Of a DNA stretch of 53,101 nucleotides, positions 36,691-52,871 are shown in pieces. Source of the DNA: Thermoplasmatota archaeon (lineage in GTDB: Archaea > Thermoplasmatota > Thermoplasmata > Thermoplasmatales > Thermoplasmataceae); assembly GCA_023484105.1 (NCBI GenBank), contig JAMDBD010000006.1:1-53101 (forward strand), written 5' to 3'. The position numbers and the translations under genes are program-made. The notes under the pieces are model-generated. The model searched no databases. It was given only the letters and a program-made list of their open reading frames with translations, and was not told the origin of the DNA. Position 1 is the first letter of the stretch. Every line of letters begins with the position of its first letter.

Positions 36691-38562
36691 TTGTTCAGGT
36701 ACAGGCCCTCATTCAGCGGGACGGATAAGGAAAGAAGCGGCATAAGTGTAGGAAAGAATACGGACGGATCCAGTTATATCTTTCCATTTAGCGAAATAGA
36801 TTCCCATACGCTCGTAGTAGGCAGAACCGGCAGTGGAAAGAGCAGTCTTCTCCATGAGTGTGTCACCGGTCTTTTAAGGAACGGAAAGAATGTAGTGCTC
36901 CTGGACCCTCACGGGCAGTTGAGTTCACAGGTTATCAGTCACGCGCCATATGCTGATCTGATATACTTTTCCACAGGAGATTCCAGGTCAGGAAACAGGG
37001 TGAAAATCAATCCGCTTTCAGTCAGCATGATGGAGGATGCGATGGTAGTAGCAGGTTCCCTAAGGGATCTGTTACAGAATGACAGGGATCTTTCAATGGA
37101 TACATGGGGTCCAAGGCTGCAGGTGATAATTGGAGGGCTACTCCCTGCTCTGCTTTACGAGCGGAAAGTTTCGTCTCTTAACGAATTCTGTATGCTGCTG
37201 ATGGACAGAAAGGCCATGCAAAATGCACTCACTGGAATTCACAACGTTGAGATCGCCAGCTTTGTAAACTCTGCCATGGCGGATCAGAGAGTCTGGAGAG
37301 AATACGTGTCAAGCACCATTAACAAGCTCATAGGGATCATATCTGATATTTCTCTATCAAGGGTCTTTGGAGAATCTGATTCTTTTCATATCGATAGTGT
37401 GCTCTCCGGGAATTCAGAGCTAATGGTACTTGACTTTTCAAAGGATCAGGTATCTAAGTCCTCAATGAGGGCAGCCTTTACTTTAATACTCGCAAGAATA
37501 TGGATAGCTGCGCTTAGATCACGTATCAACGAAACCTGGATAGTGATCGATGAAGCTCAGGAGCTCTCAGGTAGCCTGATGGATAATTTCCTGAACGAAG
37601 GGAGAAAATTTGGAATAAGGCTTGTGTTATCATCGCAATCACTGAATTTCTTTGATGAAAGAATGTCAAATTCTATATTATCAAACGCAGGCAACTTTTT
37701 TTCGTTCCAGACTTCCAGATATGATGCCCAAATGCTTTCCGGAATGTTTCCCCAGTCCATGAGAAAACGGATCGAAGATACTCTAATATCCCTTCCACCA
37801 CACGAATGCGTGCACATTAACAGAGACAGGATACTTGAACCCATTCCCGGGTTCACAACATCAATGGTTGATCCGGTCAACAAAGATCGCTTGCTGTGTG
37901 AAACGACAAGATCTCAGGAGAAATATGGTGCTCCTGAAAAGCCCAGGGAAATATTCATCACCAGAGGACTGGATACACACCAGACTCTCACAGACAGAGT
38001 CAGGAATTTTCTCAGCAGGCTCGGCCTGTTGGAGATGCAGGTTTTTACCATTGATGGGAGCAGACCGGACTGCATATTTACGGATTCAGTAACCGTATTT
38101 CTCGGTGAGATTGAAGTGAGTGATCTCATCCATCCCGAGAGAGTGCTGAAAAAGTTGATTTCATACAATGGACGTAAGAAATTATTTTTCACAGAAAATG
38201 GAGACTGCTCCATTCTCTATGAAATGATGCTTTCCCTTTTCGAGAGGCGTAAATTCAATGTTGACTTTGAAAATATAAGTATCGTTGAGAGAAGGAACTC
38301 GAGATTTTATGTATATGATGGCTCCAAACTTAGGATTCCGACCCCAGATTCCTTCAAAAGAGGCAGCTTCATACTGAGATATGGCAGTGAGACAGCACAA
38401 AATGTCTTGAAGGCACTTTCACTGCTGTGGAATTCCGGGAAGGATGAGATATTTCAGGAGGATATCCCTGCCAAGGAAAGGGAGCAGATGTCGGGATTAA
38501 CTTCAATGATGGAGGAACATGGGGGCTCTCTCACCATAAGGAAGCTATTTGGAACAGGCTGA
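36691..38562 (+). CDS. HerA/VirD4-like ATPase with nuclease-like C-terminal domain
   Basis: A 623-residue protein. VGKNTDGSSYIFPFSEIDSH leads to Walker A GRTGSGKSS (44-52), LDPHGQ (71-76), Walker B WIVIDEAQEL (283-292) and SSQSLN (314-319), the layout of FtsK/HerA and type IV coupling ATPases. From about 430 a second region holds RPD (458-460) and LGEIEVSD (471-478) before ERVLKKLISYNGR, which resembles a PD-(D/E)xK-type nuclease fold lacking the standard Lys. The start is TTG 36691, in the same frame as citrate synthase and two codons after its stop. No membrane segment is seen, unlike VirD4. A role in DNA transfer, packaging or processing is inferred. Confidence 0.8.
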   Translation: MFRYRPSFSGTDKERSGISVGKNTDGSSYIFPFSEIDSHTLVVGRTGSGKSSLLHECVTGLLRNGKNVVLLDPHGQLSSQVISHAPYADLIYFSTGDSRSGNRVKINPLSVSMMEDAMVVAGSLRDLLQNDRDLSMDTWGPRLQVIIGGLLPALLYERKVSSLNEFCMLLMDRKAMQNALTGIHNVEIASFVNSAMADQRVWREYVSSTINKLIGIISDISLSRVFGESDSFHIDSVLSGNSELMVLDFSKDQVSKSSMRAAFTLILARIWIAALRSRINETWIVIDEAQELSGSLMDNFLNEGRKFGIRLVLSSQSLNFFDERMSNSILSNAGNFFSFQTSRYDAQMLSGMFPQSMRKRIEDTLISLPPHECVHINRDRILEPIPGFTTSMVDPVNKDRLLCETTRSQEKYGAPEKPREIFITRGLDTHQTLTDRVRNFLSRLGLLEMQVFTIDGSRPDCIFTDSVTVFLGEIEVSDLIHPERVLKKLISYNGRKKLFFTENGDCSILYEMMLSLFERRKFNVDFENISIVERRNSRFYVYDGSKLRIPTPDSFKRGSFILRYGSETAQNVLKALSLLWNSGKDEIFQEDIPAKEREQMSGLTSMMEEHGGSLTIRKLFGTG

Positions 38563-39370: not shown

Positions 39371-39925
39371 ATGTTGGATATGTTGGACTATATACGGCAG
39401 GGTTCGGAAGCCAGGCTGAAGATCAGTGTTGAAGATATAGAGTTTGTAGCGTCAGCTCTAAGGGACTCAATCCTGAAAGGGGGAAAGTTAGTTGTTTTTG
39501 GAAATGGCGGGTCAGCTGCGGATGCCCAGCATTTTGCCGCAGAGCTAACTGGCAGATTCATGAAGGAGAGGAAATCTCTTCCCGCCATTGCGCTTTCAAC
39601 AAATACATCCGCTCTGACGGCCATAGGGAATGATTATTCATTTGAGGATGTCTTTTCAAGGCAGGTTTCCGGACTGGTGACCAGCTCAGATACTGTTGTG
39701 GGGATATCCACTTCAGGTAATTCATCAAACGTTGTTTATGGCTTGGAGGTTGCCTCCAGAATCGGGGCATTTACAGTAGCAATGACAGGTTCGTCAGGCG
39801 GAAAGATATCAGGAATTGCTAAAAAGACCCTTAGGGCGGAAAGTTCAGTCACACCGATCATCCAGGAGATTCATATATGCATGATTCACATGATATGCAT
39901 GAGGCTTGACGAGCTTCTGGGATAG
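39371..39925 (+). CDS. gmhA: Sedoheptulose 7-phosphate isomerase
   Basis: SIS-domain isomerase that makes D-glycero-D-manno-heptose 7-phosphate, first step of activated heptose synthesis. FGNGGSAADAQHFAAELTGRF (43-63) and STSGNSSN (113-120) bind the sugar phosphate; H54, E58, Q165 and H173 match the zinc/active-site set of bacterial GmhA in spacing. Length 184 is typical. A CCGGTGATTC Shine-Dalgarno-like motif lies just before the ATG. It is followed with no gap by the membrane glycosyltransferase-like gene, and an HddA-type kinase lies 11 kb downstream, so heptose in a surface glycan is likely. Confidence 0.93.
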   Translation: MLDMLDYIRQGSEARLKISVEDIEFVASALRDSILKGGKLVVFGNGGSAADAQHFAAELTGRFMKERKSLPAIALSTNTSALTAIGNDYSFEDVFSRQVSGLVTSSDTVVGISTSGNSSNVVYGLEVASRIGAFTVAMTGSSGGKISGIAKKTLRAESSVTPIIQEIHICMIHMICMRLDELLG

Positions 39926-41833
39926 ATGCGGCTTATCGGTAAAGGATCTGATCGCGAGTGGGGACTGATCCCGGTTCTAATTGTTACGACTGCAATTGGA
40001 ACACTCTATGGCATACTGTCCGTATTGAGGTTTGAAGCTTACAATTCAGGAATCTACGATCTTGGAGTGACATTCTATGAAATTTATATAATATCGCATG
40101 GACACTTCTCTATTACAGGCATCACTGCCTACCAGGCATCCAGATCTATCATGTTCATTCTGGCTCCTATGTTTGGATACTACGGAAAGATGCCTGCTCT
40201 ACTGGTATTTCAGTCCTTCATTCTTGCCGCTGGAGGAATACCTCTCTATTTCATCTCTAGAAATATGGGGAGTGATCAGCTGAGTTCATCCCTCATTTCC
40301 ATTTCCTATGTGATTTTCTATCCGCTTGCTGGCGTCGCATGGTTTGACTTCCATTTCATGGCCACATTTCCGACCGTTTATCTGATCTTCCTGGCCCTTA
40401 TGCTTTATGGCAGAGGAAAGGCAGGACTGGCTCTGGCTATCCTTTGTTTTTCCACGGATCCTCTGGCTCCTGCCATTGTGGGTATTACCGCTATTGTTCT
40501 GATAATGGAAAACAGAAAGAAGGAAAGATTCCCGGTGCATGAATTGGAGGCGGTTCTAGCTCTATCATTCATCTACTACGCGGTCGGGGTACTGGTTTTT
40601 TCGGATTCGTACATAAGTTCGTACTTAGGAATGAATAATGTATTTCCGGTGCAATTGCCGTATCTCCCTTTTACTTATATTCTGTATCTTCTTCTTCCAG
40701 TTTTGTTTCTCTCTCTCATCGGGATTGATTACTTTGCTGCGGCAACTCCATTTTTTCTCTTTATTTTTCTGAATAATTACCAGCCGTATTTCAACCTCAT
40801 GTTCTATCAGTATCCGGCTCTTATCGCCCCCGTTGTCTTTGTTTCTGCCTCTATGGGCCTTGCACGACTTCACAGAGCAGCCAGAAATTATGAGGAGAAA
40901 CACTCAGGGAAAAGAAAAAGAGCGCAGTCCAGAACAGTAAAATCAGTAGCTGTCTCCATTTTAATCCTTAACGTGATCCTGTTTTCATTTCTCACACCGG
41001 CTGGTAATTTGTTTACCGGCCCCAATGACAGCAATGTTTCGGGAGACTTAACCGGGCTGCCTTATTCATACAACACAGTACAGTATATTGCCTATCAACA
41101 CTATGACAGTTATCTTAGGGATGTTATCAGCATGGTACCTAAAGGCAGCAGCGTAATGATTGAGGACAACCTTCCACAGATGAGCTACGGGTATAAGTGG
41201 TATCTTCCGGAATGGATCACACCTGCAAATCTACCGAAATATGCCATAATTGATCCGTATTCTCGCTTTTACGACCAGGGGTCATATTATGGATCAAATA
41301 TTTCCAACTGCACAGTGGCAAGGGCAAACATGCTTTACAGCAAGTACGGATACGGACTTGTTGCGGAGATTGGTGGAATAGTGCTGATGGAAAGAGGTTA
41401 TACTGGGACGGTTAAATTTACCCCTCTTACAATGAATTTTTCTTACAACTCATTTAAGTATAATGCAGGTAAAACAATGAAGATCGGAAACGATGTGATT
41501 CTTGAACCGGACAACTCTGGAGGTTATGGTTTCTATGGTCCCTATACATTTTTTGTCCCTGGAAGATACATTATCCATTTGAATCTCTTGCCAATTGGTG
41601 ACAACTTGAAGAACCAGAACTTGACAATGCAGCTGGTCAACACATCAGTGACCGGAACTATTAACATCGACACGTCTCTTCTTGTCAACCTCAGTAGCCT
41701 TTATCCAGACGGTATCAATATCAGCGTCAACATTACTGGATTCCAGTCTCTCGTGGAGTTTAGAAGCTTTTACATGCATACTCTATCTCCATTGATTTTC
41801 TACGGAGCAGAAATGACGGAGGTGCAACCGTGA
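39926..41833 (+). CDS. DUF2079-like membrane protein (second copy)
   Basis: A 635-residue membrane protein with about 10-11 helices followed by a long extracytoplasmic C-terminal domain (about 370-635) rich in NxS/T sites. The first loop has YDLGVTFYEIYIISHGHFSIT, and the C-terminal part has MVPKGSSVMIEDNLPQMSYG, parallel to the SDNLFPIVANHD region of the gene at 33069. It begins at the base after the gmhA stop and overlaps the next gene by four bases (GTGA). A GT-C-like role in glycan building is inferred. Confidence 0.85.
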   Translation: MRLIGKGSDREWGLIPVLIVTTAIGTLYGILSVLRFEAYNSGIYDLGVTFYEIYIISHGHFSITGITAYQASRSIMFILAPMFGYYGKMPALLVFQSFILAAGGIPLYFISRNMGSDQLSSSLISISYVIFYPLAGVAWFDFHFMATFPTVYLIFLALMLYGRGKAGLALAILCFSTDPLAPAIVGITAIVLIMENRKKERFPVHELEAVLALSFIYYAVGVLVFSDSYISSYLGMNNVFPVQLPYLPFTYILYLLLPVLFLSLIGIDYFAAATPFFLFIFLNNYQPYFNLMFYQYPALIAPVVFVSASMGLARLHRAARNYEEKHSGKRKRAQSRTVKSVAVSILILNVILFSFLTPAGNLFTGPNDSNVSGDLTGLPYSYNTVQYIAYQHYDSYLRDVISMVPKGSSVMIEDNLPQMSYGYKWYLPEWITPANLPKYAIIDPYSRFYDQGSYYGSNISNCTVARANMLYSKYGYGLVAEIGGIVLMERGYTGTVKFTPLTMNFSYNSFKYNAGKTMKIGNDVILEPDNSGGYGFYGPYTFFVPGRYIIHLNLLPIGDNLKNQNLTMQLVNTSVTGTINIDTSLLVNLSSLYPDGINISVNITGFQSLVEFRSFYMHTLSPLIFYGAEMTEVQP

Positions 41834-43410
41834 AAATACGTTTGACGGAATCACCTATTTTAACCATACTTGTGCTTCTTCTCTCCGCTTCCACATCCTT
41901 ATTCGTCTTTCTGACCCTGCCTGCAGGAAAATTTTATGGCGATCTGCTGGGATACATCGCACTTGGAAAAGAGATATCAGCCAACTCAATGTTGATCCCA
42001 TCGGTGAATACCATACACTATCCTGGAAGCGCATGGGTATATCCGCCTGTGATACCTTACCTGGCTGCAATTTTTGTGATGGTATCCAATGGATATTCCC
42101 TTCAGATGCTTTCAGCCTTTTCTGTGCTGACTGTCTGCCTCACCTCCATTCCAGCTCTTAAGCTGATGCGCAATATTTTCGGTCCAGAGGAAGGTTCCTT
42201 AGGAGGGATTCTGTATGCGCTCTATTTCCCATCACTTTATGAGGAGACATGGGGTGGCCTCCCGCAACTTCTTGCAATTCTCCTGCTGATAACGATGCTG
42301 GCCATAATAACATCCAGAAAGGACAGAGTGAATAAATGGGATTCTTCTGCGGTTCTTCTGTTAGGATTTGCCATCCCCTTTGTCCATGATTTGACGTCGA
42401 TACTGATACTTCCCTCTCTGCTCATTGCCATTCTGTTATTCATTGTTCTCAAGTCAGGAAGATCACGAGAATCCATACTTTCCGCAATATCCTTAATAGG
42501 TCTTGTGACTGGCATTTCAATATGGTATCTGCCAAGACTGTGGTGGGTTATTGATTCCGCCTTCCCCACCAGCAATGGAGTTTTTTCATCTCTATCTTCC
42601 ATAGTCCCTTCATCCAGCAGTACTGGCATCCTTCATTCTCTCTACTCTGTTCAGCAGGTTTCTTCTGCAGCGGCTATAATCCCTTACGGATGGATACTTG
42701 TAGTTGCATTTTTCATGCTTTCTGTAGTTGTTCTGTTTAAATTTGTGGATCACAGGCAATTTCCTGTTATGGCAGCGTTCCTTTTGCTGCCTCTTGTTCT
42801 CACGTTTGCATACATTGATGACAACGTTCTTTCGGCCAGATTCTCATACTTTGCATACCTCTTTTCCTTTCTGCTTGTCGCTCCTATGTTTTACAGGATG
42901 CTTAAAGCAACTCTCAACAGTTTCGAGGGAAGGCAGAGCAAAGGTATCACATCAAAATATACAGTCCGGATAGTTTCAGCATGCCTTATTGCTGTCATGG
43001 TTTCACTCTCTGTCTCCGGAATGCTGTACGATGCTGGATCCCATGCTTATTACGCCTATTCTGATAACAGATCTGAATTTCAGTATTCGATGGATGCTGT
43101 TCATTTTCTCGGTCAGCATCACTCGTCAGGTACAGTTGTTGCTGCTGGAACCATAGGTTTCCTGATCATGGCATATGATGCCCTGCCTGTTATTGAATAT
43201 CAGCCGCTGAATTATCTCACGCAGCCAGTTGAATGGAATGAAAGTTATGCAGCCTATGAAATTTTGCATCATCCGGATAGTAATATTTCCAGGGAAATGA
43301 TCATTCGTTACAATGTTTCTTACGTTATTATGAGTCTTGGTGAGATTGATCTGCCTGAATACTATAATCCTGTTTATTCGAATCCGTATTTTGCCATCTA
43401 TGTAGTCTGA
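41830..43410 (+). CDS. GT-C-like polytopic membrane protein
   Basis: A 526-residue protein with about 11-12 helices. Just after the first helix lies KFYGDLLGYIALGKEI and then PGSAWVYPPVIPYLAAIF, the arrangement seen in lipid-sugar-dependent GT-C enzymes where an acidic residue in loop 1 is catalytic. The C-terminal part (about 400-526) holds a soluble outer domain with FQYSMDAVHFLGQHHSSGTVV, similar in design to the DUF2079 tails. The start is GTG 41830, overlapping the TGA of the previous gene. No family name could be fixed. Confidence 0.8.
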   Translation: MKIRLTESPILTILVLLLSASTSLFVFLTLPAGKFYGDLLGYIALGKEISANSMLIPSVNTIHYPGSAWVYPPVIPYLAAIFVMVSNGYSLQMLSAFSVLTVCLTSIPALKLMRNIFGPEEGSLGGILYALYFPSLYEETWGGLPQLLAILLLITMLAIITSRKDRVNKWDSSAVLLLGFAIPFVHDLTSILILPSLLIAILLFIVLKSGRSRESILSAISLIGLVTGISIWYLPRLWWVIDSAFPTSNGVFSSLSSIVPSSSSTGILHSLYSVQQVSSAAAIIPYGWILVVAFFMLSVVVLFKFVDHRQFPVMAAFLLLPLVLTFAYIDDNVLSARFSYFAYLFSFLLVAPMFYRMLKATLNSFEGRQSKGITSKYTVRIVSACLIAVMVSLSVSGMLYDAGSHAYYAYSDNRSEFQYSMDAVHFLGQHHSSGTVVAAGTIGFLIMAYDALPVIEYQPLNYLTQPVEWNESYAAYEILHHPDSNISREMIIRYNVSYVIMSLGEIDLPEYYNPVYSNPYFAIYVV

Positions 43411-43664
43411 AGGGGATGACAAACAGAGCATTGGCGGAAGACATTAACTTAAAAATAGCGCTGATACAAGGGTGAAGTACGAATTCAGAAATCCAGGTTA
43501 ATGAAAATCGTAACGTATTTCACACGGGTTAACTCAGGGCTCTATCTCCGGACACACATGAAGACTTAACGATCCGTTTTTACTGTCCAGCAATCTCTCA
43601 TCACGAAAATACGTGCATTCCGCCCCTTAAGGCTGTTCATTCCACTGCTAACTTCAAACTCCTA

Positions 43665-43680
43665 ACATCTTTATAAAACA
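43665..43680 (+). promoter_or_regulatory. TATA box of the second glycan unit
   Basis: ATCTTTATAAAACA lies about 15-28 bases before the ATG at 43694 in a 283-base gap that otherwise shows no gene; this separates the gmhA operon from the following glycan genes. Confidence 0.5.
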
Positions 43681-43693
43681 TATCACTTATGAT

Positions 43694-46000
43694 ATGAGAA
43701 TCGTGACAGGCAGGCATATTTCCGGCTTGAGGGATCTTTTTAGCAAAGTTGAATTAAGAAGAACTCTCTATCTCATCTACGGAATAATATTCGTCAGCTA
43801 TGCCTTTCTTGCATGGTACATCGTTGGATATATACTGATCTCCGATCTGGTGATGATATGGATTCTTCTGACCATGGGAGGAATTCTTGTCATATTTTCA
43901 GTATTTATCGGGGAGGAACCCATGCTTGTCAGGCTTTTGCCTTACATAGGCTTTCTTCTTGCCCTGATGATATTTGGGCAGCTCCTTGTTCAGGTAATTC
44001 CTGCATATGGAACAGACGAACTCGCCGGGAACACTTATGCAGCATATCTTTTCATCCATGGCCTTAACCCATATATCGACACAAATATGGCAGGAGTATA
44101 CGCGTTCTCCCACATTCCTCCCTATTCCATCACGCCTATGACTACCGGAGGACCCGTTGATTTCTTTGTCTATCCCGGCCTCTCAATCCTTATTTTTATA
44201 CCAACTCTGCTGCTCGGTCTAAGATCCTACGACATTATCATACTTTTCTCTGGCCTCGCAATAATACTGATTGCCTATTACTATAGAAAGAAAGGCTATG
44301 ACGTCCTTGTGCCGTTCACACTCATTGCGATGATGATTTCTGTGGAATATGTCTTCTATTCCCTCAGCGGGGACGACGACATCGTGTGGACTTTCTTTCT
44401 GGGTCTGGCGTACATATTTCGCAAAAAGCCATGGCTTTCAGGTGTCTTCTATGGGCTCTCAATCTCATTCAAGCAGATCACGGCAATACTGGCACCATTC
44501 TTTCTCTACTTCATATATATGGAGTCCGGCAGGAAACCAAGAACCGATCTGGATCTCGTTGCAGGTGCTGCTTTAAGCTTCTTTGCAACGAACATACCGT
44601 TCATCCTCATGGGGGCAGGTACCTGGTTAAAGCACATTATAGCCGTCGACACTCAGCCGATACTGGGAGCCGGGATAGGGCCGTCCATCCTTTCCTTTGC
44701 AGGTTTCGTGTATATACCATCCGTTGTGTTTCTCATCATTTCGGTTTCACTACTGTTGGTTCTGTTTGTCATATACGTTGCTTATTATGAAAACCTCAAG
44801 TATGCATTCTTTGCGTTCCCTATGATAATTTTCATATTCAATTTCAGGGTTCTTGAGAACTATATTGCCTTCTGGCCTTACATGATACTGCTTGTCCTTC
44901 CTGATTTTATTGGTGATTACAGAGAAAATGTACAGGGCAGGGTTCAGAAACATCATAATCTGCATCCATTTGCAACAGGATTTTCCGGTCACAGGAGGGT
45001 CACAGCAATATTTATCATGGCGATTATTGCCAGTGGTGCGATGGCTTCCGTTGGCTATGAATACAACGTTACAAACGCGGATACCGCAATTCACATAAAC
45101 TGGCTGGGCAATGCCTCTGATCCAGCCTGGGCTCCGGGCTACATTTCAGAGATCCACGTTAATCTCTCATACACGCCATTTTCATCCGAGCCGGCTGCGC
45201 TTCCCATCTTATTCAGGCTCCTGCCTGCAGCCACAGGAGATACCTATGATATCAATGGGCTTTTATGGCATGCTAATAAGAATATAACGCAGGGAAGCCA
45301 TACTGTGGCAATATTTCCGGATACGTATGCCGATCTTCTTAAAAATAACCTGTCATTCAGGCTTGAGGCTTATTATGGTCAGATAAATGCATACTATCCA
45401 ACCACTGTGCTGAACATCAGCGGATCGTTTGGGTTTCCCATCCCGGATCCGAACATGACCTATCCGTCCTCCCTATCTGATCCCGTCTATCCTGGATGGA
45501 AATTTTCATACAGTGTTACGAATGGAAACGGAAGTTTTAAAACTGAGCTTGGTGGTTTTAACCTGAGCCAGTATGTGAAGATTGCCGGAAACTCCTGGTC
45601 GTACTCAATGGTAACTGCATTTGCGAACTTCACTGAACTGAGCCATATGAACGCAACTCTACACTATAATGTGACTTCCTGGTCTGGAGTGAATAAATTT
45701 TCCTCTTACTACAGCCAGACCAGATCAAGGCTCGCAGGCGTAATGCTGAGATCTTTCAGTGGTTTTCAGATCCTGGTTGCATATAATTCTTCAGCCTCTG
45801 GACAGATATATCAGGTGAACAGCACTTTTGCTGTGGTAATCTCTGATTCCAACTCTCTAAGTTTCAGGAGTCTAATAAATTCCATCGAAAGTACCACAGG
45901 CTGGTCATTCACGACAGGGGAACTTTCCTATGTGGTTGCTGTTCTAAATGTTTCTGGATACACATCTGCAGTGTTTTCCGGGATACAAATGACAACATGA
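43694..46000 (+). CDS. Large GT-C (GT87/mannosyltransferase-like) membrane protein
   Basis: A 768-residue protein. Residues 1-430 form about 11-12 membrane helices, with the loop-1 motif PAYGTDELAGNTYAAYLFIHGLNPY, typical for lipid-linked sugar transferases, and SGDDDIVWTFF and PFFLYFIYMES in later loops. Residues 460-768 form a large outer domain with about fifteen potential N-glycosylation sequons (for example NVT, NIT, NLS, NMT), built of predicted beta strands. A cell-surface glycan transferase is likely; the donor cannot be told. A 25-base hairpin follows the stop. Confidence 0.83.
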   Translation: MRIVTGRHISGLRDLFSKVELRRTLYLIYGIIFVSYAFLAWYIVGYILISDLVMIWILLTMGGILVIFSVFIGEEPMLVRLLPYIGFLLALMIFGQLLVQVIPAYGTDELAGNTYAAYLFIHGLNPYIDTNMAGVYAFSHIPPYSITPMTTGGPVDFFVYPGLSILIFIPTLLLGLRSYDIIILFSGLAIILIAYYYRKKGYDVLVPFTLIAMMISVEYVFYSLSGDDDIVWTFFLGLAYIFRKKPWLSGVFYGLSISFKQITAILAPFFLYFIYMESGRKPRTDLDLVAGAALSFFATNIPFILMGAGTWLKHIIAVDTQPILGAGIGPSILSFAGFVYIPSVVFLIISVSLLLVLFVIYVAYYENLKYAFFAFPMIIFIFNFRVLENYIAFWPYMILLVLPDFIGDYRENVQGRVQKHHNLHPFATGFSGHRRVTAIFIMAIIASGAMASVGYEYNVTNADTAIHINWLGNASDPAWAPGYISEIHVNLSYTPFSSEPAALPILFRLLPAATGDTYDINGLLWHANKNITQGSHTVAIFPDTYADLLKNNLSFRLEAYYGQINAYYPTTVLNISGSFGFPIPDPNMTYPSSLSDPVYPGWKFSYSVTNGNGSFKTELGGFNLSQYVKIAGNSWSYSMVTAFANFTELSHMNATLHYNVTSWSGVNKFSSYYSQTRSRLAGVMLRSFSGFQILVAYNSSASGQIYQVNSTFAVVISDSNSLSFRSLINSIESTTGWSFTTGELSYVVAVLNVSGYTSAVFSGIQMTT

Positions 46001-46025
46001 TGCCTGCTGTTATACAGCAATGGCA
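46001..46025 (+). terminator. Hairpin after the GT-C gene
   Basis: TGCC-TGCTGT-TAT-ACAGCA-AT-GGCA is an almost perfect stem-loop starting at the base after the stop codon. It has no T-run, so processing or RNA protection is as likely as termination. Confidence 0.4.
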
Positions 46026-46092
46026 TCAGTTCAGCATTGGCAAAATTTATTTTATCAGGGATATTACCAGAATGCATCAGTGAAGGAATACA

Positions 46093-47082
46093 ATGTCAAG
46101 AATATCTCTTCAGGTTGTATTGGAGGAAGGAGCTTTTGATCCTGAAAATATAGTTGGAATAGCTAAGGAAGAGAATCTTGACATGGATCTGTTCATAATT
46201 GATCCTGGGAGCAGGACAATTAAGGGATACATGAGCGATGGAGGAATAACCGGAAATGTGAAAAGTTCCGGAAATTTCATTAAAGACATTCAAAACACTC
46301 TGAAGCGTTCGGAGGGAGATTTTTTTGCCGTTGTGAGATCGGACAAGATGTGTTCAATGCCCACACTGATGAGAATGATAACCAAGGCTGAGGAAGGATA
46401 CGATGTGGTTGTTGCGTCAAGGTTTCCAGGCAAGAGAAAGTTTGATGTTAAAACGGCAATAATAAAGCTTCTAGTAAGGGAGATGAACGGGATCTCTGAT
46501 CCGCTCTCGCCTTTTTTCATTGCCCGCCGGGACCTTATAGAAAATATTGATCTGAGCACCTCGCCTGAGACTATTCTTCCTGAAATTATCATAAGAAACA
46601 GGAAGCCCAGGGTGGCAGAGGTAAAGGCAGACTATCCGGGCAGAGGAAGAGTCTATTCAGGGAGCTTTATTCTGTACTGCCTGAGCCTCCTGAAGCTTTC
46701 AAATTACAGGGCTTTGAAATTTGCCTTGGTGGGTATTACGGGAATAGCAATAAATGAAGGGGCAGAATATGTGTTTCACAGTTATACAGGATTCATAATT
46801 CCCGTGGCACTGTTTCTTTCGATTGAACTGTCAATAATCTGGAATTTCATATTCAACAACGCCTGGACATTTTCAGACAGGAAGTCTGGAGGGTTTCTTT
46901 ACAAGCTTGGAAAGTATAATGCCGTAACAGCTCTCGGGGCAGCAATAAACTACGGGGTGGGAATCGGCCTGGCCACGATTGTTTTCTATCTCTATGCAAA
47001 TCTTCTGGGGATCTTTATTGGATTTCTGGTAAACTATCTAGGAAGTGACTACCTGGTCTGGAAGATAGAGGCGAATGAATAG
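46093..47082 (+). CDS. Degenerate GT2 domain fused to GtrA
   Basis: N-terminal 200 residues have the GT2/DPM1 framework (VVVASRFPGKRKFD...DPLSPFFIARRDLI, as in the true GT2 at 47502), but the nucleotide-sugar site is lost: the N-terminal V(I/T)xxNE block is missing and the expected DxD reads RSD (VVRSDKMC). Residues from about 208 form a GtrA domain of four helices (LKFALVGITGIAINEG, WNFIFNNAWTF, NYGVGIG...NYLGSDYLVWK). GtrA proteins flip or anchor lipid-linked sugars. It probably acts as a non-catalytic partner of a glycosyltransferase. It overlaps the next gene by eight bases. Confidence 0.83.
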   Translation: MSRISLQVVLEEGAFDPENIVGIAKEENLDMDLFIIDPGSRTIKGYMSDGGITGNVKSSGNFIKDIQNTLKRSEGDFFAVVRSDKMCSMPTLMRMITKAEEGYDVVVASRFPGKRKFDVKTAIIKLLVREMNGISDPLSPFFIARRDLIENIDLSTSPETILPEIIIRNRKPRVAEVKADYPGRGRVYSGSFILYCLSLLKLSNYRALKFALVGITGIAINEGAEYVFHSYTGFIIPVALFLSIELSIIWNFIFNNAWTFSDRKSGGFLYKLGKYNAVTALGAAINYGVGIGLATIVFYLYANLLGIFIGFLVNYLGSDYLVWKIEANE

Positions 47083-47521
47083 ATCAGGCATTTCCAGTGT
47101 TATACGTTCCAACCTGAGGCGCGGATCTAAATTCTTAATAGCCGGCGTCGGTGGTTTTCTCTTCTACCTTCTGGTACTTTACATAGGAATACGTCTTGTA
47201 ACAATATTTTACCTTCCGGAAATAGATGTTGTATCTGCATTCCTGAGCGTTGTTTTTGGATTTGCCATAAACGAACACTGGTCAACAAGCGGATCCGGTG
47301 ATCATTCAGCAGGTGCCATCAGGTGGCTCAGAAGAATGATCATATTTGAGGGGATATACGCGCTGGGAAACGTGATATCAATAGCAATACAGCTTGCCCT
47401 GTACTATTACGCGGGAATCAGCCCATTCATAGGCAGCTTCATAGGAACCGTGATTGCCTTTCCCTTCAACTATGTCCTGAGCATGCACCTTGTATGGAGA
47501 ATTAACATTTTTTCACAGTAG
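47075..47521 (+). CDS. GtrA-like membrane protein
   Basis: A 148-residue four-helix protein with the GtrA pattern: KFLIAGVGGFLFYLLVLYIGI, then FLSVVFGFAINEHWS, and a last segment FPFNYVLSMHLVWR. It follows the GT2-GtrA fusion with an eight-base overlap, so the two GtrA units may form a hetero-oligomer. Its 3' end overlaps the convergent GT2 gene by 20 bases. Lipid-linked sugar translocation is the usual role proposed for the family. Confidence 0.83.
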   Translation: MNRSGISSVIRSNLRRGSKFLIAGVGGFLFYLLVLYIGIRLVTIFYLPEIDVVSAFLSVVFGFAINEHWSTSGSGDHSAGAIRWLRRMIIFEGIYALGNVISIAIQLALYYYAGISPFIGSFIGTVIAFPFNYVLSMHLVWRINIFSQ

Positions 47522-48248
47522 ATCCTATCCGTCTGTAGATTCTGACTTCCTTGAGATATCTCCTCATGAAATGGGTTGATCTGTCTGTGACTTTGGATTT
47601 GCCATACTTTCTTTCAAGGAAATAGTAGGGGATCTCTGCAACCTTCAGGGAAGGATATGAGGCAATCACATAGAGGAGAATCTTGTATGTGCCTGGAAGC
47701 GGTCTGAGATTCCTTATCAGATGAGAATCGCAAACGAAATAACCGGAAAGTGGATCTTTCAGATTCTTTGTTCCGGGTACAAGAAAGCGTGCAATAATTT
47801 CTGCCACCTTACTTATTAAGCCTCTGGATATGGTTCTCCTGTAATCACCTCCACGAACATACCTTGATGCAACGACAACGTCATATCCTGACGCTTTTCT
47901 GTTAAGCATTTCAGGTATAGTTTCAACAGGGTGCTGCAGATCGCCGTCCATTACTATGGTCCAGTCAGCTTTAATTGTACTGGATGCCTCAACGGTTGCA
48001 GGGCATGTTCCAGGTTTCACGGTCTGGCTGACAACTCTTATGGCAATCCCAGGTATTGATTCCGCATTGGCCCTGATCATTTCCAATGTGCCGTCAGTGC
48101 TACCTCCGTCTATAAACACTATTTCATTCAGGACCCATCCATTTCCTGATCTGCTGATATTTGAAAATGACTTTATTATTGGCTCTATATTGCCAGCCTC
48201 ATTAAGCACTGTGATGGCAGCAGCCACCTTTTTAGCCGATACTTCCAT
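47502..48248 (-). CDS. GT2 glycosyltransferase, dolichol-phosphate mannosyltransferase-like
   Basis: Family 2 glycosyltransferase. ITVLNEAGNIEPIIKS, FIDGGSTDGT and the metal site VMDGDLQHP (D101, D103) are intact, followed by VVASRYVRGGDYRRTISRGLISKVAEIIARFLV and DPLSGYF, typical of DPM1-like enzymes that load a sugar from a nucleotide donor onto a lipid phosphate. There are no membrane helices after the catalytic domain (248 residues), so it may rely on the adjacent GtrA protein. It lies on the opposite strand, convergent with those genes. Confidence 0.88.
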   Translation of the reverse strand: MEVSAKKVAAAITVLNEAGNIEPIIKSFSNISRSGNGWVLNEIVFIDGGSTDGTLEMIRANAESIPGIAIRVVSQTVKPGTCPATVEASSTIKADWTIVMDGDLQHPVETIPEMLNRKASGYDVVVASRYVRGGDYRRTISRGLISKVAEIIARFLVPGTKNLKDPLSGYFVCDSHLIRNLRPLPGTYKILLYVIASYPSLKVAEIPYYFLERKYGKSKVTDRSTHFMRRYLKEVRIYRRIGSTVKKC

Positions 48249-48303
48249 CTATTCACCGCATGCAGTGCCAGGACATAATCAATTCCATCCCTTCATTGCT
48301 CTA

Positions 48304-49215
48304 TTATACTATTGCTACCGGTGAAACAGGTGATCCGGTTCCGCCTCTGATGGGAAGAGGAGCACATACGAGCAGGAATTCATATTTTCTGTCTCTGGCC
48401 AGCTCGTCAAGCTTCATGTTGTCAATGAGCCTTATGCCGTTCATGGTTATCAGATACTGATGGACAGGCAACACTGATCCGCTTATTTCAGCGGGAGAAA
48501 CTTCAGTAGACGGCGAATCGCTGCCTGAGAGTGAAACGCCATGCTTCACCATCCATTCGGCCATCTCCAGTCCAATTCCTGCGGCTTTATCGTAAAGCTT
48601 CGAGAATCTGATGTGATCATTCCAGATCCTGCTGGCACCAGTGTATAGAAATACTGCATCTCCAGGCATGACCTCAATTCCCTCAGCCTTCAGAAATTTC
48701 TCTATATCCGATCTGTTTGGAGCACCCTGTTCAGCAATGTCCACGCCAAGTATGCGGGGATAATCTATCACCACACCTCTTGTCACAACTGGCTGCACAT
48801 CGTCTATCCCAAGAGTTGACGATCCTCTCGGGCCTATAGAATCTGCCGCCCTGATCTTTCCGTGCAGAAAGCCTCCAACAGAAATGTGGTTGAGAGAATC
48901 AATGTGGGTGCCTGAATGATCAGACATCTCAAGCCTTCCTATATTGGCCCCGAATTCATTGCTGTTGTGGCCGCGGAAAGGTTCGTGATAGTCAACACTT
49001 CTCAAGGTTACAGAGTAAAAAAAAGGCCCGTGGGTTGGGCGATAGGCAATATCCTCTGACAGCGTATGAGAAAGCCTGTATATCCTTCCCAGCGAAGGGA
49101 TCCTGAGGCTTTCAATCACCTTGCTTTCTGATATTTTCTCAAGCGCGCCCTGTCTGTCATCTGAAGCAGCGCCGGAATTTTTCCATCTTTCAATCTCCTC
49201 AACGAATTTCATCAT
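48304..49215 (-). CDS. Cyclase family protein (kynurenine formamidase-like fold)
   Basis: Metal-dependent hydrolase of the cyclase family (PF04199). The signature DHSGTHIDSLNH (99-110) gives metal ligands H100, H104 and D106 plus H110. RLSHTLSEDIAYRP precedes it, and LTGAD-like SGSDSPS and PVHQYLI follow. Length 303, with an N-terminal helical extension of about 45 residues longer than the bacterial formamidases. The substrate is unknown; family members act on formyl-kynurenine, isatin and other cyclic amides. It interrupts the glycan genes and has its own AGATATATTTTAAAG promoter. Confidence 0.87.
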   Translation of the reverse strand: MMKFVEEIERWKNSGAASDDRQGALEKISESKVIESLRIPSLGRIYRLSHTLSEDIAYRPTHGPFFYSVTLRSVDYHEPFRGHNSNEFGANIGRLEMSDHSGTHIDSLNHISVGGFLHGKIRAADSIGPRGSSTLGIDDVQPVVTRGVVIDYPRILGVDIAEQGAPNRSDIEKFLKAEGIEVMPGDAVFLYTGASRIWNDHIRFSKLYDKAAGIGLEMAEWMVKHGVSLSGSDSPSTEVSPAEISGSVLPVHQYLITMNGIRLIDNMKLDELARDRKYEFLLVCAPLPIRGGTGSPVSPVAIV

Positions 49216-49299
49216 TTAAGGTATAGTGTTATCTTTAAAATATATCTGGCCCTGACAACTGATGGCAGAAAAGTGCCAGGATAAATTGTACTATAAAGA

Positions 49300-49313
49300 A
49301 GATATATTAATTT
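49300..49313 (+). promoter_or_regulatory. TATA box of the GT2-epimerase unit
   Basis: AGATATATTAATTT is centred about 27 bases before ATG 49333, opposite to the minus-strand box for the cyclase gene near 49235-49248. Confidence 0.5.
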
Positions 49314-49332
49314 CCGATTATTTCCGGCACTG

Positions 49333-50070
49333 ATGAGTATTTCGGTGGTGATTCCAGCATACAACGAAGAGAACAGAATAAGGAATATACTGGAACCGCT
49401 CACCAGATATACGGAGGTTTCGGAAATAATAGTTGTATGCGATGGTAATGACAGAACCCCGGATGTTGCATCCGCGTTCCCGCGAGTGAAGGTGCTGAAA
49501 TTTTCCAGGAAACTGGGCAAGGGAGGAGCAATAATAGAGGGGATCAGAGCTTCAACTGGTACTTCCGTTGCGTATGTCGATGCAGACGGTGCCATTCCTG
49601 CGTCTGAAGTTATGAGGCTGATAAATCTCCTCGGTTCAGACAGAAAGGTAATCGCCGCATCCCGCTGGGTAAAGGGATCAGATGTTGAAAGGCATGAAGG
49701 GTTGGGCAACATAATCGCTGGCCGTTTTTTCCATTATCTTCTATTCTATTTTCTTGGGATTAAAATAAAGGACACGCAGTGTGGGCTGAAGTGCTTTCCA
49801 GGCACTGTCAGGGATGACGTCATTCCTCACATAGGGACAACAAACAGGTTCTTTGACGTATCCTTTCTGTATAACTGCCAGTTGCGCGGATACAGCATAT
49901 GTGAAGTGGGAATAAAGTGGTCCCATAATGAGGACACCAGAATGCCGATAAGGAAGGCAGTTCCCATGATGTTTTTGTTTATCATCGGCCTTAAAATTGC
50001 AAACACAAAGGGCGGGCACAGGTTCGAGAAAATATATATTAAGTTCAAGAGCTTTTTCCGGGCTACCTGA
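49333..50070 (+). CDS. GT2 glycosyltransferase (ALG5/DPM1-like)
   Basis: Family 2 glycosyltransferase with VVIPAYNEENRI, IIVVCDGNDRTPD, and an intact DAD (83-85) in VAYVDADGAIP. KIKDTQCGLKCFP and FFDVSFLYNCQLRGYSICEVGIKWSHNEDTRM are typical of dolichyl-phosphate glucosyl/mannosyltransferases. Length 245, with a hydrophobic patch at 205-225 that could touch the membrane. One base separates it from the epimerase start, so both are on one message and may share a nucleotide-sugar pathway. Confidence 0.9.
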   Translation: MSISVVIPAYNEENRIRNILEPLTRYTEVSEIIVVCDGNDRTPDVASAFPRVKVLKFSRKLGKGGAIIEGIRASTGTSVAYVDADGAIPASEVMRLINLLGSDRKVIAASRWVKGSDVERHEGLGNIIAGRFFHYLLFYFLGIKIKDTQCGLKCFPGTVRDDVIPHIGTTNRFFDVSFLYNCQLRGYSICEVGIKWSHNEDTRMPIRKAVPMMFLFIIGLKIANTKGGHRFEKIYIKFKSFFRAT

Positions 50071-50071
50071 T

Positions 50072-50962
50072 ATGAGATTCATTGTAACCGGCGGAGAGGG
50101 CTTCATAGGTCGCAGGATCGTTGAAGTCATAAGGAAAAATGGGGATGAGGCCATATCGATGGATATTGCCGGCAGTCCCGACATCAGGACCGACCTGATG
50201 GATACCGGCCTGCTCCGGACTTCCTTTAAGGGCATAGATGGGGTGTTCCATCTCGCGGCAATAACGTCACCGCCGCAGTTTGAGGAAGACCTTTTGAAGG
50301 GATTCAACAATAACGTTACAGGCACTCTGAACGTGCTCTATGCTGCTGCAAAATCCGGTGTACGCCGTGTTGTCTTTGCATCTTCTTCATCAACATACGG
50401 AAATTCAAAGACAAAAACCACCGAAGATATGCAGACACTGCGCCATGAGAACATGTATCCGATCACCAAGATCATAGGTGAACGCCTCGGCGACTATTTT
50501 TTCATCAGGAATGAACTTGAGTTTGTGTCCCTGAGATATTTCAATACCTATGGGCCAGGGGAGAATACGAAGAGTCTCTACTCAAGCGTAATATGGCAGT
50601 TTGTAAGGTCTTCCATGAAAGGCGAGGATATCATCATTTATGGCGACGGAACCCAGTCACGGGATTTCATACATGTTGACGATGTGGCAAGAGCCACTGT
50701 AAGTGCATTTCACAGGGGAAAGAACGGATCTGCATACAACGTAGGCTCTGGTGTTTCACGATCCTTCAATGAGATCGCCTCTGCCGTGAAAGAGGCAATC
50801 AGATCCGAATCAAGGATAAAGCACGTTCCAAATCCTCTGAAGAACTATCAGATGTTTACCCAGGCTGATATAAATGCTATCCGGAAAGACACAGGTTGGT
50901 CACCAACAGTTGATCTGAATTCCGGAATTATATCTATAAGGGATGGCGAGAGGTTTGATTAG
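50072..50962 (+). CDS. NAD-dependent sugar-nucleotide epimerase/dehydratase
   Basis: Extended short-chain dehydrogenase. The NAD-binding turn is VTGGEGFIGRRI, followed by VFHLAAITSPP, the ASSSSTYG Ser/Thr block and the catalytic YPITK. Later motifs are RYFNTYGPGE and GDGTQSRDFIHVDDVA, as in UDP-glucose 4-epimerases and related enzymes. Length 296 from the true start at ATG 50072; an earlier in-frame codon lies inside the GT2 gene. The sugar cannot be determined. The 3' end overlaps the convergent kinase gene by four bases. Confidence 0.9.
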   Translation: MRFIVTGGEGFIGRRIVEVIRKNGDEAISMDIAGSPDIRTDLMDTGLLRTSFKGIDGVFHLAAITSPPQFEEDLLKGFNNNVTGTLNVLYAAAKSGVRRVVFASSSSTYGNSKTKTTEDMQTLRHENMYPITKIIGERLGDYFFIRNELEFVSLRYFNTYGPGENTKSLYSSVIWQFVRSSMKGEDIIIYGDGTQSRDFIHVDDVARATVSAFHRGKNGSAYNVGSGVSRSFNEIASAVKEAIRSESRIKHVPNPLKNYQMFTQADINAIRKDTGWSPTVDLNSGIISIRDGERFD

Positions 50963-51936
50963 TCGCCTACCATTATGATCCTGCTGCCGAGATATTCAAA
51001 GCGAAAGTTCACAGGCCTGAGATCCGGTAATGAGTCTATAACTCTCTGGCGGTTTTCAGGTTCAACGTAGAACAGCATGAAACCGCCACCACCGGCACCG
51101 ATGAGTTTGCCACCTACCGCTCCGTTTTTCATTGCTGTCTCATACCATGAATCAATGACAGGATCGGTGATCCCTTCAGACAGGGTCTTCTTAAGAAGCC
51201 AGTTTTCGTGCATGGTTCTGCCAATCATCTCTGGTTTTCTTGAGGCACATATACTCTGAATCTCTCTTGCCATTTCTGACATTTTTATGTACTTCTCTAT
51301 GTGATCTGATATGGAGGCTTTTTGCATTTCATGAATCGCTGTTGATTTGCGCTGCCTGCCGGTATACATCAACAAAAGATTGTTGCTTATCTCCTCTCTT
51401 ATCTGATCGTCCATTATGAGTGGCTTCACGTCAACGCTCTCATCGCTGTGAAACTCAAGAAGCTGCAATCCGCCAAATGCAGCCATGTACTGATCCTGTT
51501 TCCCTCCTGGTTCGCCTAGGATTTCACGCTCTATCTTCACCGCCTCTTCGGCAAGGGTTCTAGGGGATACGTAATTTCCAAGAAATGCATGAAGTGCATT
51601 CAGAAGTCCAACAAGAAATGAACTGCTGGAACCCAGGCCAGTGCCGCTCGAGGGTATGTCGGATATGCTTACAATCTCTATTCCGCCCTTAATTCCAAGC
51701 AACCTGAGAGCTTCCCTCACTGTTGGATGCTTTATCTTTTCCACGCTGTCAACTATCTCTGTAACGGAATAACTAACCCTGATCTGATCATCAAACTTCT
51801 TGTTTATCACGACATAGATGTATTTGTTTATTGCCGCAGAAACCACAGCGCCGGTTCCGTGCTTCGAATAAAATTCCCTAATGTCAGTCCCTCCACCGAC
51901 AAAGCTTATCCGCAGCGGAGTCCTTGACATTATCAT
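50959..51936 (-). CDS. GHMP kinase, heptose 7-phosphate kinase-like (HddA)
   Basis: Phosphorylates a sugar, most likely D-glycero-D-manno-heptose 7-phosphate at C1. From ATG 51936 it begins MIMSRTPLRISFVGGGTD, as bacterial HddA does. The GHMP ATP motif is SSGTGLGSSSSFLVGLLNAL, followed by EREILGEPGGKQDQYMAAFGGL and the C-terminal motif IGAGGGGFMLFYV. Length about 325. An alternative GTG at 51957 overlaps the stop of the upstream epimerase. With GmhA at 39371 this supports a heptose branch; fucokinase-like activity on L-fucose is an alternative for the family. Confidence 0.88.
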   Translation of the reverse strand: MIMSRTPLRISFVGGGTDIREFYSKHGTGAVVSAAINKYIYVVINKKFDDQIRVSYSVTEIVDSVEKIKHPTVREALRLLGIKGGIEIVSISDIPSSGTGLGSSSSFLVGLLNALHAFLGNYVSPRTLAEEAVKIEREILGEPGGKQDQYMAAFGGLQLLEFHSDESVDVKPLIMDDQIREEISNNLLLMYTGRQRKSTAIHEMQKASISDHIEKYIKMSEMAREIQSICASRKPEMIGRTMHENWLLKKTLSEGITDPVIDSWYETAMKNGAVGGKLIGAGGGGFMLFYVEPENRQRVIDSLPDLRPVNFRFEYLGSRIIMVGD

Positions 51937-51953
51937 TCTCTGGTTCAATAGAA

Positions 51954-52871
51954 TCACTTATAGTATTCGTTTATGAGCCTGAGCCCCTCCTCAAGGGTAA
52001 CCCTTGCCCTGAATCCGAGTTTCTTCTCAGATTTAGCGGTATCTGCAAGAGTCTCATGAACATAATTTTTGACCGGCATTTCTATGTACTTTGGCTTAAC
52101 ATTCTTTCCAAGCATCCTGTTAAGTAAATCAACAAGCTCGTTAAGGCTGAAATTTTTTCCTGTACCGACATTGAATGCATCATATCCTCTGTAGCCAGAT
52201 GCCTTGATCAGCGCATCCACCACGTCATCTGCATATATGAAGTCCCTGCGCTGCGTTCCATCTCCATATATAACAGGCGATTCGTTTTTCTTCATGGACC
52301 AGAGGAACTGTGTGGCAAGGTTTGCATAACCGTCTTTCGAAGCCTCATGTTTACCGTAAACCGAAAAAAATCGCATTGCTGAAACATTGATACCATACAG
52401 ATCGTTGTACAGCTGTCCCAGTCTCTCACACGCTATCCTGGCTTCCGTGTAGAAATCCGTAATCCTTGGTATGGCATCCTCCCTGTGAGGAGGAGTTATT
52501 CCATTGTATATTGAAGATGTGGAGGAAAAAACAACGCTTGAATCGTTGCGCCTGGCGCTCTCCATTATAGATATCATTCCCGAGATGACTTCCGAAACGA
52601 GCTGCGGATCCTTTCTGTACATAGGCGATGCGGAATAAAATCCCAAATGATAGATAGTTCCGTATTTCCTGTCCTTATGGTCAACGGCTTTTTTGGCGTC
52701 TTCATTGAAAATCCTTATACCTTTGTTATTTTTCAGTTCCTCAATGTTTGAGGGGCTCCCGGTGTGCATGTTGTCTATTATGTCTATTTCTGAACTTCCT
52801 GAAAGCCTGTGAACCAAGTTAGATCCTATGAAGCCGAGTCCTCCAGTGACTAAAACAGCATCGTTACTCAT
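51954..52871 (-). CDS. NAD-dependent sugar-nucleotide epimerase with YxxxR
   Basis: Extended SDR protein of 305 residues. LVTGGLGFIGSNLV binds NAD, VVFSSTSSIYN supplies the Ser/Thr, but the catalytic YxxxK reads YTEAR; the codon is AGG, so Arg is not a translation error. RFFSVYGKHE, GDGTQRRDFIYADDVV and FNVGTGKNFSLNEL are otherwise normal. The next gene, the GHMP kinase, is on the same message. UDP-galactose or UDP-N-acetylglucosamine epimerase activities are typical of the family, but the altered residue leaves the reaction open. Confidence 0.88.
   Translation of the reverse strand: MSNDAVLVTGGLGFIGSNLVHRLSGSSEIDIIDNMHTGSPSNIEELKNNKGIRIFNEDAKKAVDHKDRKYGTIYHLGFYSASPMYRKDPQLVSEVISGMISIMESARRNDSSVVFSSTSSIYNGITPPHREDAIPRITDFYTEARIACERLGQLYNDLYGINVSAMRFFSVYGKHEASKDGYANLATQFLWSMKKNESPVIYGDGTQRRDFIYADDVVDALIKASGYRGYDAFNVGTGKNFSLNELVDLLNRMLGKNVKPKYIEMPVKNYVHETLADTAKSEKKLGFRARVTLEEGLRLINEYYK

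What the first reader, a model, noticed from the sequence alone, without database searches (positions are those of the whole stretch)
39371..51936. Heptose genes in an archaeal glycan locus
GmhA with a full zinc/active-site set and an HddA-like kinase flank membrane glycosyltransferases, GtrA proteins and sugar epimerases. The two steps are consecutive in GDP-D-glycero-D-manno-heptose synthesis, best known from bacterial LPS and S-layers. This predicts a heptose in the surface glycan of this archaeon. The phosphatase (GmhB) and nucleotidyltransferase (HddC) are not seen and may lie past the right edge.
Basis: partly seen in the sequence, partly recalled or inferred. Interest (0 to 1): 0.6.

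Follow-up and report, generated by a model that had tools for sequence, protein, structure and literature searches.

The report
Heptose pathway for Thermoplasma-type surface glycan
This acid-loving archaeon carries the genes for making an activated seven-carbon sugar, scattered over its genome with half of them in a glycan gene cluster; it fits a seven-carbon sugar already reported in the protein-linked glycan of its relative Thermoplasma acidophilum, so the finding is real but mostly extends something known.

Summary
The window (a complete contig of a Thermoplasmatales genome) encodes GmhA (39371-39925) with every metal and active-site residue, and a GHMP kinase (50959-51957) whose best matches are all heptose-7-phosphate kinases, well ahead of fucokinases and mevalonate kinases. 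A GmhB-like phosphatase and one candidate nucleotidyltransferase exist in the genome, but on other contigs, not past the right edge. In relatives the four genes sit together in compact cassettes, and some are fused. Transketolase and transaldolase, which supply sedoheptulose 7-phosphate, are present. Across 117 genomes of the order, GmhA, kinase and GmhB co-occur strongly. T. acidophilum, whose N-glycan is reported to contain D-glycero-D-galacto-heptose, encodes all four too. The heptose is therefore most likely an N-glycan component. The weak link is the nucleotidyltransferase: it forms its own archaeal clade and also occurs without the pathway. The least ordinary part is an epimerase-like SDR translationally coupled to the kinase; its catalytic lysine is arginine in 63 of 63 orthologues. 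It may set the galacto configuration. Heptose genes and heptose in this order were reported before, so this is a new member of a known kind.

The parts
39371..39925 (+). GmhA: D-sedoheptulose 7-phosphate isomerase, step 1; the stop codon abuts the start of the DUF2079 gene
   Evidence: TIGR00441 1.1e-53, PDB 1tk9 8e-46, Zn/active-site residues 56/56
39926..41833 (+). DUF2079 membrane protein, probable lipid-linked glycan assembly enzyme
   Evidence: PF09852 3.5e-27; a homologue is next to SDR2-HddA in G101, a T. volcanium-sized Thermoplasma genome
41830..43410 (+). PMT_2-like membrane glycosyltransferase
   Evidence: PF13231 3.7e-6
43694..46000 (+). large membrane protein, 768 aa, no Pfam family; syntenic in congener G075 (50%)
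46093..47082 (+). GT2-like plus GtrA protein (C-terminal GtrA domain)
   Evidence: PF04138 3e-17
47075..47521 (+). GtrA protein
   Evidence: PF04138 1.4e-10
47502..48248 (-). GT2 glycosyltransferase (polyprenyl-phosphate sugar synthase type)
   Evidence: PF00535 3e-18
49333..50070 (+). GT2 glycosyltransferase (dolichyl-phosphate hexose transferase type)
   Evidence: PF00535 1.9e-24; NF041391 6e-14, below cut-off
50075..50962 (+). SDR1: nucleotide-sugar epimerase/dehydratase with canonical YxxxK
   Evidence: PF01370 1.6e-52; K conserved 11/11
50959..51957 (-). [quoted passage not shown]
   Evidence: NF049969 3e-51; PDB 3k85, 4n3o, WcbL; tree
51954..52871 (-). SDR2: GalE-type fold, overlaps the kinase start by 4 bases; catalytic Lys of YxxxK replaced by Arg145 in all orthologues; candidate NDP-heptose epimerase
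   Evidence: linked to the kinase in 28 of 40 loci, median gap 6 b; R in 63/63; AlphaFold pLDDT 89.9, Foldseek best 6dnt, 4zrm

Best explanation
The window holds the first two enzymes of a nucleotide-heptose pathway inside an N-glycan assembly locus of a Thermoplasmatales archaeon. Transketolase and transaldolase supply sedoheptulose 7-phosphate. GmhA isomerises it to a heptose 7-phosphate; the HddA-like GHMP kinase adds a 1-phosphate; the GmhB-like phosphatase on contig C4 removes the 7-phosphate; a nucleotidyltransferase, most likely the one on C21, activates the 1-phosphate, probably as the GDP sugar. SDR2, translationally coupled to the kinase, then probably epimerises the activated heptose (C4, or C2 and C4 together with SDR1) towards the D-glycero-D-galacto form reported for the T. 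acidophilum N-glycan. GT2/GtrA and the DUF2079/PMT_2 membrane enzymes move it onto a lipid-linked glycan that AglB transfers to surface proteins. Shown: presence, active sites, clustering, co-occurrence and fusions. Inferred: every reaction, the nucleotide, the epimerisation and the carrier.
For: GmhA and kinase assignment with intact active sites (WcbL is a biochemically studied heptokinase, PMC4691232). GmhB-like HAD over the TIGR01656 cut-off, PRK08942 1e-43, with DxD, Zn Cys/His and RK residues 32/32. Cassettes in relatives: L040 and L047 hold NTase-GmhB-GmhA-HddA; L031/L032 NTase-GmhA-HddA; L033/L041 GmhB with GmhA-SDR2-HddA-SDR1; bacterial L066 is the textbook operon GmhA-HddC-GmhB-HddA with overlaps of 1-4 bases. 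Fusions: GmhA-GmhB in a methanogen (L054), NTase-GmhB-HddA in L063. Co-occurrence over 117 genomes: GmhA/HddA 73/8/5/31, p 7e-16; GmhA/GmhB 61/20/4/32, p 5e-11, not corrected for kinship. Transaldolase and transketolase close together on C3; STT3/AglB on C30. T. acidophilum, identified by citrate synthase identical to 2ifc, has all four genes and SDR2 next to the kinase; its N-glycan is cited as holding D-glycero-D-galacto-heptose (PMC12448462).
Against: GmhA and kinase miss the curated equivalog cut-offs (181 of 209 bits; 175 of 600). The NTase is in 16 genomes with no GmhA, kinase or GmhB and forms a clade apart from bacterial HddC and from GMPP, so it may make GDP-mannose. GmhB is missing in most f5 genomes that have GmhA and kinase. 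In this genome the four genes are not one cluster. The galacto configuration is not a direct product of the manno pathway. PMC5155288 reported no capsular heptose metabolism in T. acidophilum. HldE-type enzymes were not searched for. No sugar analysis exists for this organism.
Confidence: 0.78

Rival explanations
1. The kinase is another GHMP enzyme (fucokinase, galactokinase, or a kinase of the modified mevalonate pathway) and the isomerase is a DiaA-like or other SIS protein; the pairing is coincidental.
For: Both proteins miss curated equivalog cut-offs. GHMP and SIS families are broad. The genome has three other GHMP kinases.
Against: Fucokinase and mevalonate kinase models score 86-91 bits below the HddA model (88.6 and 84.1 against 174.8). 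A mevalonate-3-kinase-like gene with an adjacent P-loop kinase is elsewhere, on C9. GmhA lies near the kinase in 20 of 40 loci and co-occurs with it. GmhB and NTase join them in cassettes and fusions.
Confidence: 0.05
2. [quoted passage not shown]
For: TIGR02197 (heptose 6-epimerase) is the best NCBIfam model for both SDRs. PMC3750248 assigned the I-plasma cluster to this pathway. The GmhB is nearer the beta-anomer model than the alpha one (149 against 111 bits).
Against: TIGR02197 cut-off not reached (174 and 122 of 275). By fold and sequence SDR2 is closest to UDP-sugar 4-epimerases; H. pylori HldD ranks 26th. The kinase is GHMP (HddA type), not the PfkB type of HldE. The T. acidophilum heptose is cited as D-glycero-D-galacto.
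Confidence: 0.1
3. The heptose goes to the membrane lipoglycan or an extracellular polysaccharide rather than to N-glycans.
For: DUF2079, PMT_2 and GtrA proteins are not specific for N-glycans.
Against: The Thermoplasma lipoglycan is described as glucose and mannose, whereas heptose is reported in the N-glycan (PMC12448462). An STT3/AglB gene is present.
Confidence: 0.2
4. The C21 nucleotidyltransferase makes GDP-mannose only, and the heptose 1-phosphate is activated by another enzyme (for example a GlmU-like one on C34).
For: The best NCBIfam model is mannose-1-phosphate guanylyltransferase (5.7e-32 against HddC 1.6e-23). Present in 16 genomes without the pathway. It is the only NTase in this genome outside the two of about 410 residues.
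Against: Members of the same clade are embedded in the cassettes of L040, L047, L051 and f5 genomes and lie 9-10 kb from the kinase in Thermoplasma spp.. It may serve both sugars.
Confidence: 0.35

Closest known systems
[quoted passage not shown] PMC10680097)
   Same: Same four enzyme classes, including the GHMP kinase; GmhB outside the glycan cluster, as in C. jejuni; followed by SDR enzymes that remodel the heptose.
   Different: Archaeal; NTase of a separate clade; the SDR partner is GalE-like with YxxxR, not close to a known Campylobacter GDP-heptose enzyme in these searches; probably a lipid-linked N-glycan rather than a capsule.
Thermoplasma acidophilum N-linked glycan with D-glycero-D-galacto-heptose (Vinogradov 2012, cited and modelled in PMC12448462)
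   Same: Same order; T. acidophilum carries the same four genes plus SDR2.
   Different: Genes in T. acidophilum are dispersed; no glycan data for this organism; the 2012 paper itself could not be read here.
I-plasma heptose cluster (PMC3750248) and Cuniculiplasma/Ferroplasma heptose genes (PMC5155288)
   Same: Earlier annotation of heptose synthesis genes in Thermoplasmatales; in I-plasma linked to S-layer glycosylation.
   Different: Assigned to ADP-heptose (I-plasma); PMC5155288 excluded T. acidophilum, which does carry homologues of all four enzymes.
Heptose biosynthesis enzymes across kingdoms (Tang 2024, via PMC11461863)
   Same: Reports active heptose enzymes in archaea.
   Different: Concerns nucleotidyltransferases with an STT motif and beta-heptoses; not the GHMP kinase route.

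Membership tests
GmhA (D-sedoheptulose 7-phosphate isomerase) | SIS fold with the Zn ligands/catalytic residues and phosphate loop of bacterial GmhA | tested here: met
   H54, E58, Q165, H173 in 56/56 homologues; STSGNS apart from S/T at its first position; PDB 1tk9 8e-46
GmhA (D-sedoheptulose 7-phosphate isomerase) | Reaches the curated equivalog score of TIGR00441 | tested here: not met
   181.4 of 209.45 bits; still the best model
HddA / heptose 7-phosphate kinase (GHMP) | GHMP motifs and catalytic Asp; nearest to tested heptokinases rather than other GHMP kinases | tested here: met
   GLGSSS, KQDQY, GAGGGGF conserved; 3k85, 4n3o, WcbL best; tree
HddA / heptose 7-phosphate kinase (GHMP) | Reaches the curated NF049969 cut-off | tested here: not met
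   174.8 of 600 bits; the cut-off is far above what divergent homologues reach
HddA / heptose 7-phosphate kinase (GHMP) | Phosphorylates heptose 7-phosphate at O-1 | not testable with these tools
   needs enzyme assay
GDP-D-glycero-D-manno-heptose pathway | GmhB phosphatase in the genome | tested here: met
   C4:34782-35246, TIGR01656 136 bits against a cut-off of 84, DxD and Zn residues; PRK08942 equivalog cut-off not reached (149 of 178)
GDP-D-glycero-D-manno-heptose pathway | HddC guanylyltransferase in the genome | tested here: inconclusive
   one candidate, C21:18779; own clade, nearer GMPP than HddC by model score
GDP-D-glycero-D-manno-heptose pathway | Source of sedoheptulose 7-phosphate | tested here: met
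   transketolase and transaldolase close together on C3
GDP-D-glycero-D-manno-heptose pathway | Gene linkage of the four steps | tested here: met
   not in this genome, but in L040 and L047, and through fusions in L054 and L063
ADP-heptose 6-epimerase (HldD) | TIGR02197 curated score and catalytic YxxxK | tested here: not met
   SDR1 174 and SDR2 122 of 274.6 bits; SDR2 has YxxxR
ADP-heptose pathway (HldE) | PfkB-type heptose kinase / HldE nucleotidyltransferase | not tested

The most novel reading that the evidence does not exclude
SDR2 is a previously unrecognised NDP-heptose epimerase that works with arginine in place of the SDR catalytic lysine, and with GmhA, the kinase and GmhB forms the first biosynthetic route to the D-glycero-D-galacto-heptose of Thermoplasmatales N-glycans.
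Probability: 0.35. Interest if true: 0.55.

Novelty: new member of a known kind. Interest (0 to 1): 0.4.

Why it matters
If true, an unusual sugar already reported in the N-glycan of Thermoplasma acidophilum gets a candidate biosynthetic pathway that can be tested enzyme by enzyme, and a pathway best known from bacterial LPS, capsules and S-layers is shown to be ordinary equipment of a whole archaeal order. The kinase-coupled SDR with YxxxR is a distinct, testable enzyme family.

Tried and rejected
Kinase as fucokinase, galactokinase or mevalonate-pathway kinase: rejected on scores, tree and context; the genome has a separate GHMP gene next to a P-loop kinase on C9 (a candidate mevalonate 3-phosphate pathway pair, from memory of the Thermoplasma pathway). 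C8 kinase as the real HddA: it lies by UbiA/UbiD and RFC genes, its order-wide relatives are about 32% identical to the window kinase, and it falls outside the kinase clade. GmhB and HddC past the right edge: in congener G075 the region beyond SDR2 holds transporters and unrelated genes, and GmhB and NTase are on other contigs. SDRs as HldD: cut-off not met. Vinogradov 2012 and the Cj1427 structure paper are not held. No paper in the library names both Thermoplasma and phosphoheptose isomerase. The NTase tree rests on a short search with long branches.
Full report
WHAT IS THERE. The window is a complete contig (C10) of a 1.29 Mb, 34-contig Thermoplasmatales genome. GmhA is at 39371-39925 (+) and a GHMP kinase at 50959-51957 (-). 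Between and beside them lie DUF2079 and PMT_2 membrane proteins, a 768-residue membrane protein, two GtrA proteins, two GT2 glycosyltransferases, a cyclase-family gene and two SDRs. The GmhA stop codon abuts the DUF2079 start, and SDR2 and the kinase overlap by four bases. In congener G075 largely the same order runs from citrate synthase to SDR2.

IDENTITY OF THE TWO ENZYMES. GmhA: best NCBIfam model gmhA, best PDB matches phosphoheptose isomerases, DiaA much weaker; the residues at the Zn/catalytic positions do not vary in 56 sequences. Kinase: best NCBIfam HddA, best PDB the heptose kinases 3k85, 4n3o and WcbL. WcbL is a biochemically studied heptokinase whose structures are 4USK, 4USM, 4UT4 and 4UTG (PMC4691232). 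Fucokinase and mevalonate kinase are 20 or more orders of magnitude weaker in both searches. Both proteins miss their equivalog cut-offs, which is stated here as a limit. In a maximum-likelihood tree the kinase lies in an archaeal clade (98/96) next to bacterial HddA (91/72, a moderate join), among them that of the L066 operon GmhA-HddC-GmhB-HddA; the two PDB sequences and the C8 paralogue fall outside. The L066 NTase is HddC by its match to 5xhw/6jq8.

THE MISSING STEPS. A GmhB-like HAD phosphatase is on C4:34782-35246, after a large surface-like protein and before a GT2 gene; it exceeds the TIGR01656 cut-off and keeps the DxD, Zn and RK residues. Only three NTP_transferase genes exist: two of about 410 residues on C34 and a 308-residue one on C21. 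The C21 enzyme scores better with mannose-1-phosphate guanylyltransferase than with HddC. It belongs to a Thermoplasmatota clade that includes the NTases of complete cassettes but is separate from bacterial HddC and from GMPP. It also occurs in 16 genomes without GmhA, kinase or GmhB. The HddC step is thus filled by a candidate, not settled. Transketolase and transaldolase are close together on C3, and an STT3/AglB gene is on C30.

LINKAGE IN RELATIVES. The named genome scan gave 53 loci, mostly Thermoplasmata and Micrarchaeota, including Thermogymnomonas, Acidiplasma and Thermoplasma. The kinase is next to SDR2 in 28 of 40 archaeal loci (median gap 6 bases), with GmhA nearby in 20. L040 and L047 hold NTase, GmhB, GmhA and kinase together; L031/L032 hold NTase-GmhA-kinase. 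Fusions: GmhA-GmhB in a Methanomassiliicoccaceae genome (L054), NTase-GmhB-kinase in L063, and an open frame joining GT2, GtrA and GmhA in Thermogymnomonas (L034). Over 117 genomes of the order GmhA occurs in 81, the true kinase in 78, GmhB in 65, all four in 54. The Fisher p values (7e-16, 5e-11) ignore shared ancestry.

LINK TO CHEMISTRY. Genome G097 has a citrate synthase identical over 385 residues to 2ifc, the T. acidophilum enzyme, on a single 1,564,906-base contig. It carries NTase, SDR2 next to the kinase, GmhB and GmhA. PMC12448462 states, citing Vinogradov 2012, that the T. acidophilum N-glycan contains D-glycero-D-galacto-heptose and a 6-C-sulfo-sugar, and that this glycan fits density on filaments of Cuniculiplasma and Oxyplasma; it describes the lipoglycan as glucose and mannose. 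The N-glycan is therefore the likely carrier here. The 2012 paper itself could not be read.

SDR2. Its fold model (pLDDT 89.9) is nearest to UDP-sugar 4-epimerases 6dnt and 4zrm; HldD ranks lower. The SDR catalytic lysine is arginine in 63 of 63 orthologues, while all 32 other SDRs examined keep lysine. Going from manno to galacto needs inversion at C2 and C4 (general sugar chemistry). So either two SDRs act, or GmhA gives the gluco form and one C4 epimerase suffices. Both are inferences.

PRIOR WORK AND VERDICT. Heptose genes were noted in I-plasma (PMC3750248, as ADP-heptose) and in Cuniculiplasma and Ferroplasma (PMC5155288, which excluded T. acidophilum). Active heptose enzymes in archaea are reported via PMC11461863. 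What is added here: the GHMP route, the full gene set and its co-occurrence across the order, its presence in the species with a reported heptose, and the kinase-coupled YxxxR SDR. This is a new member of a known kind with one unusual partner.

Noticed in passing
window 51954-52871; orthologues such as L019:9076-9984: SDR translationally coupled to the heptose kinase has Arg instead of the catalytic Lys of YxxxK in 63/63 orthologues.
   Followed up: partly
L016:10967-11959 (contig C8): A second HddA-like GHMP kinase, with relatives in most genomes of the order, lies by UbiD/UbiA and RFC genes; function unknown.
   Followed up: partly
L034:6717-8285 (Thermogymnomonas): One open frame joins GT2, GtrA and GmhA domains, directly upstream of SDR2-HddA; could be a true fusion or a missed stop.
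   Followed up: partly
L040:3-596 and 2634-3638; L047; L051: Two HddA-like kinases in one heptose cassette; why two are needed is unexplained.
   Followed up: no
L013:6779-7705: The C21 nucleotidyltransferase has an extra C-terminal stretch of about 85 residues that looks cupin-like by eye but matches no Pfam family.
   Followed up: partly
window 48304-49215: Cyclase-family gene (weakly like arylformamidase) inside the glycan locus, also present in congener G075.
   Followed up: no
window 36691-38562: TrwB/HerA-like ATPase beside citrate synthase at the left edge of the glycan locus, conserved in the congener.
   Followed up: no
L005:928-2022 and 2033-2626 (contig C9): Mevalonate-3-kinase-like GHMP gene next to a P-loop kinase, a candidate pair of the Thermoplasma-type mevalonate pathway.
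   Followed up: no
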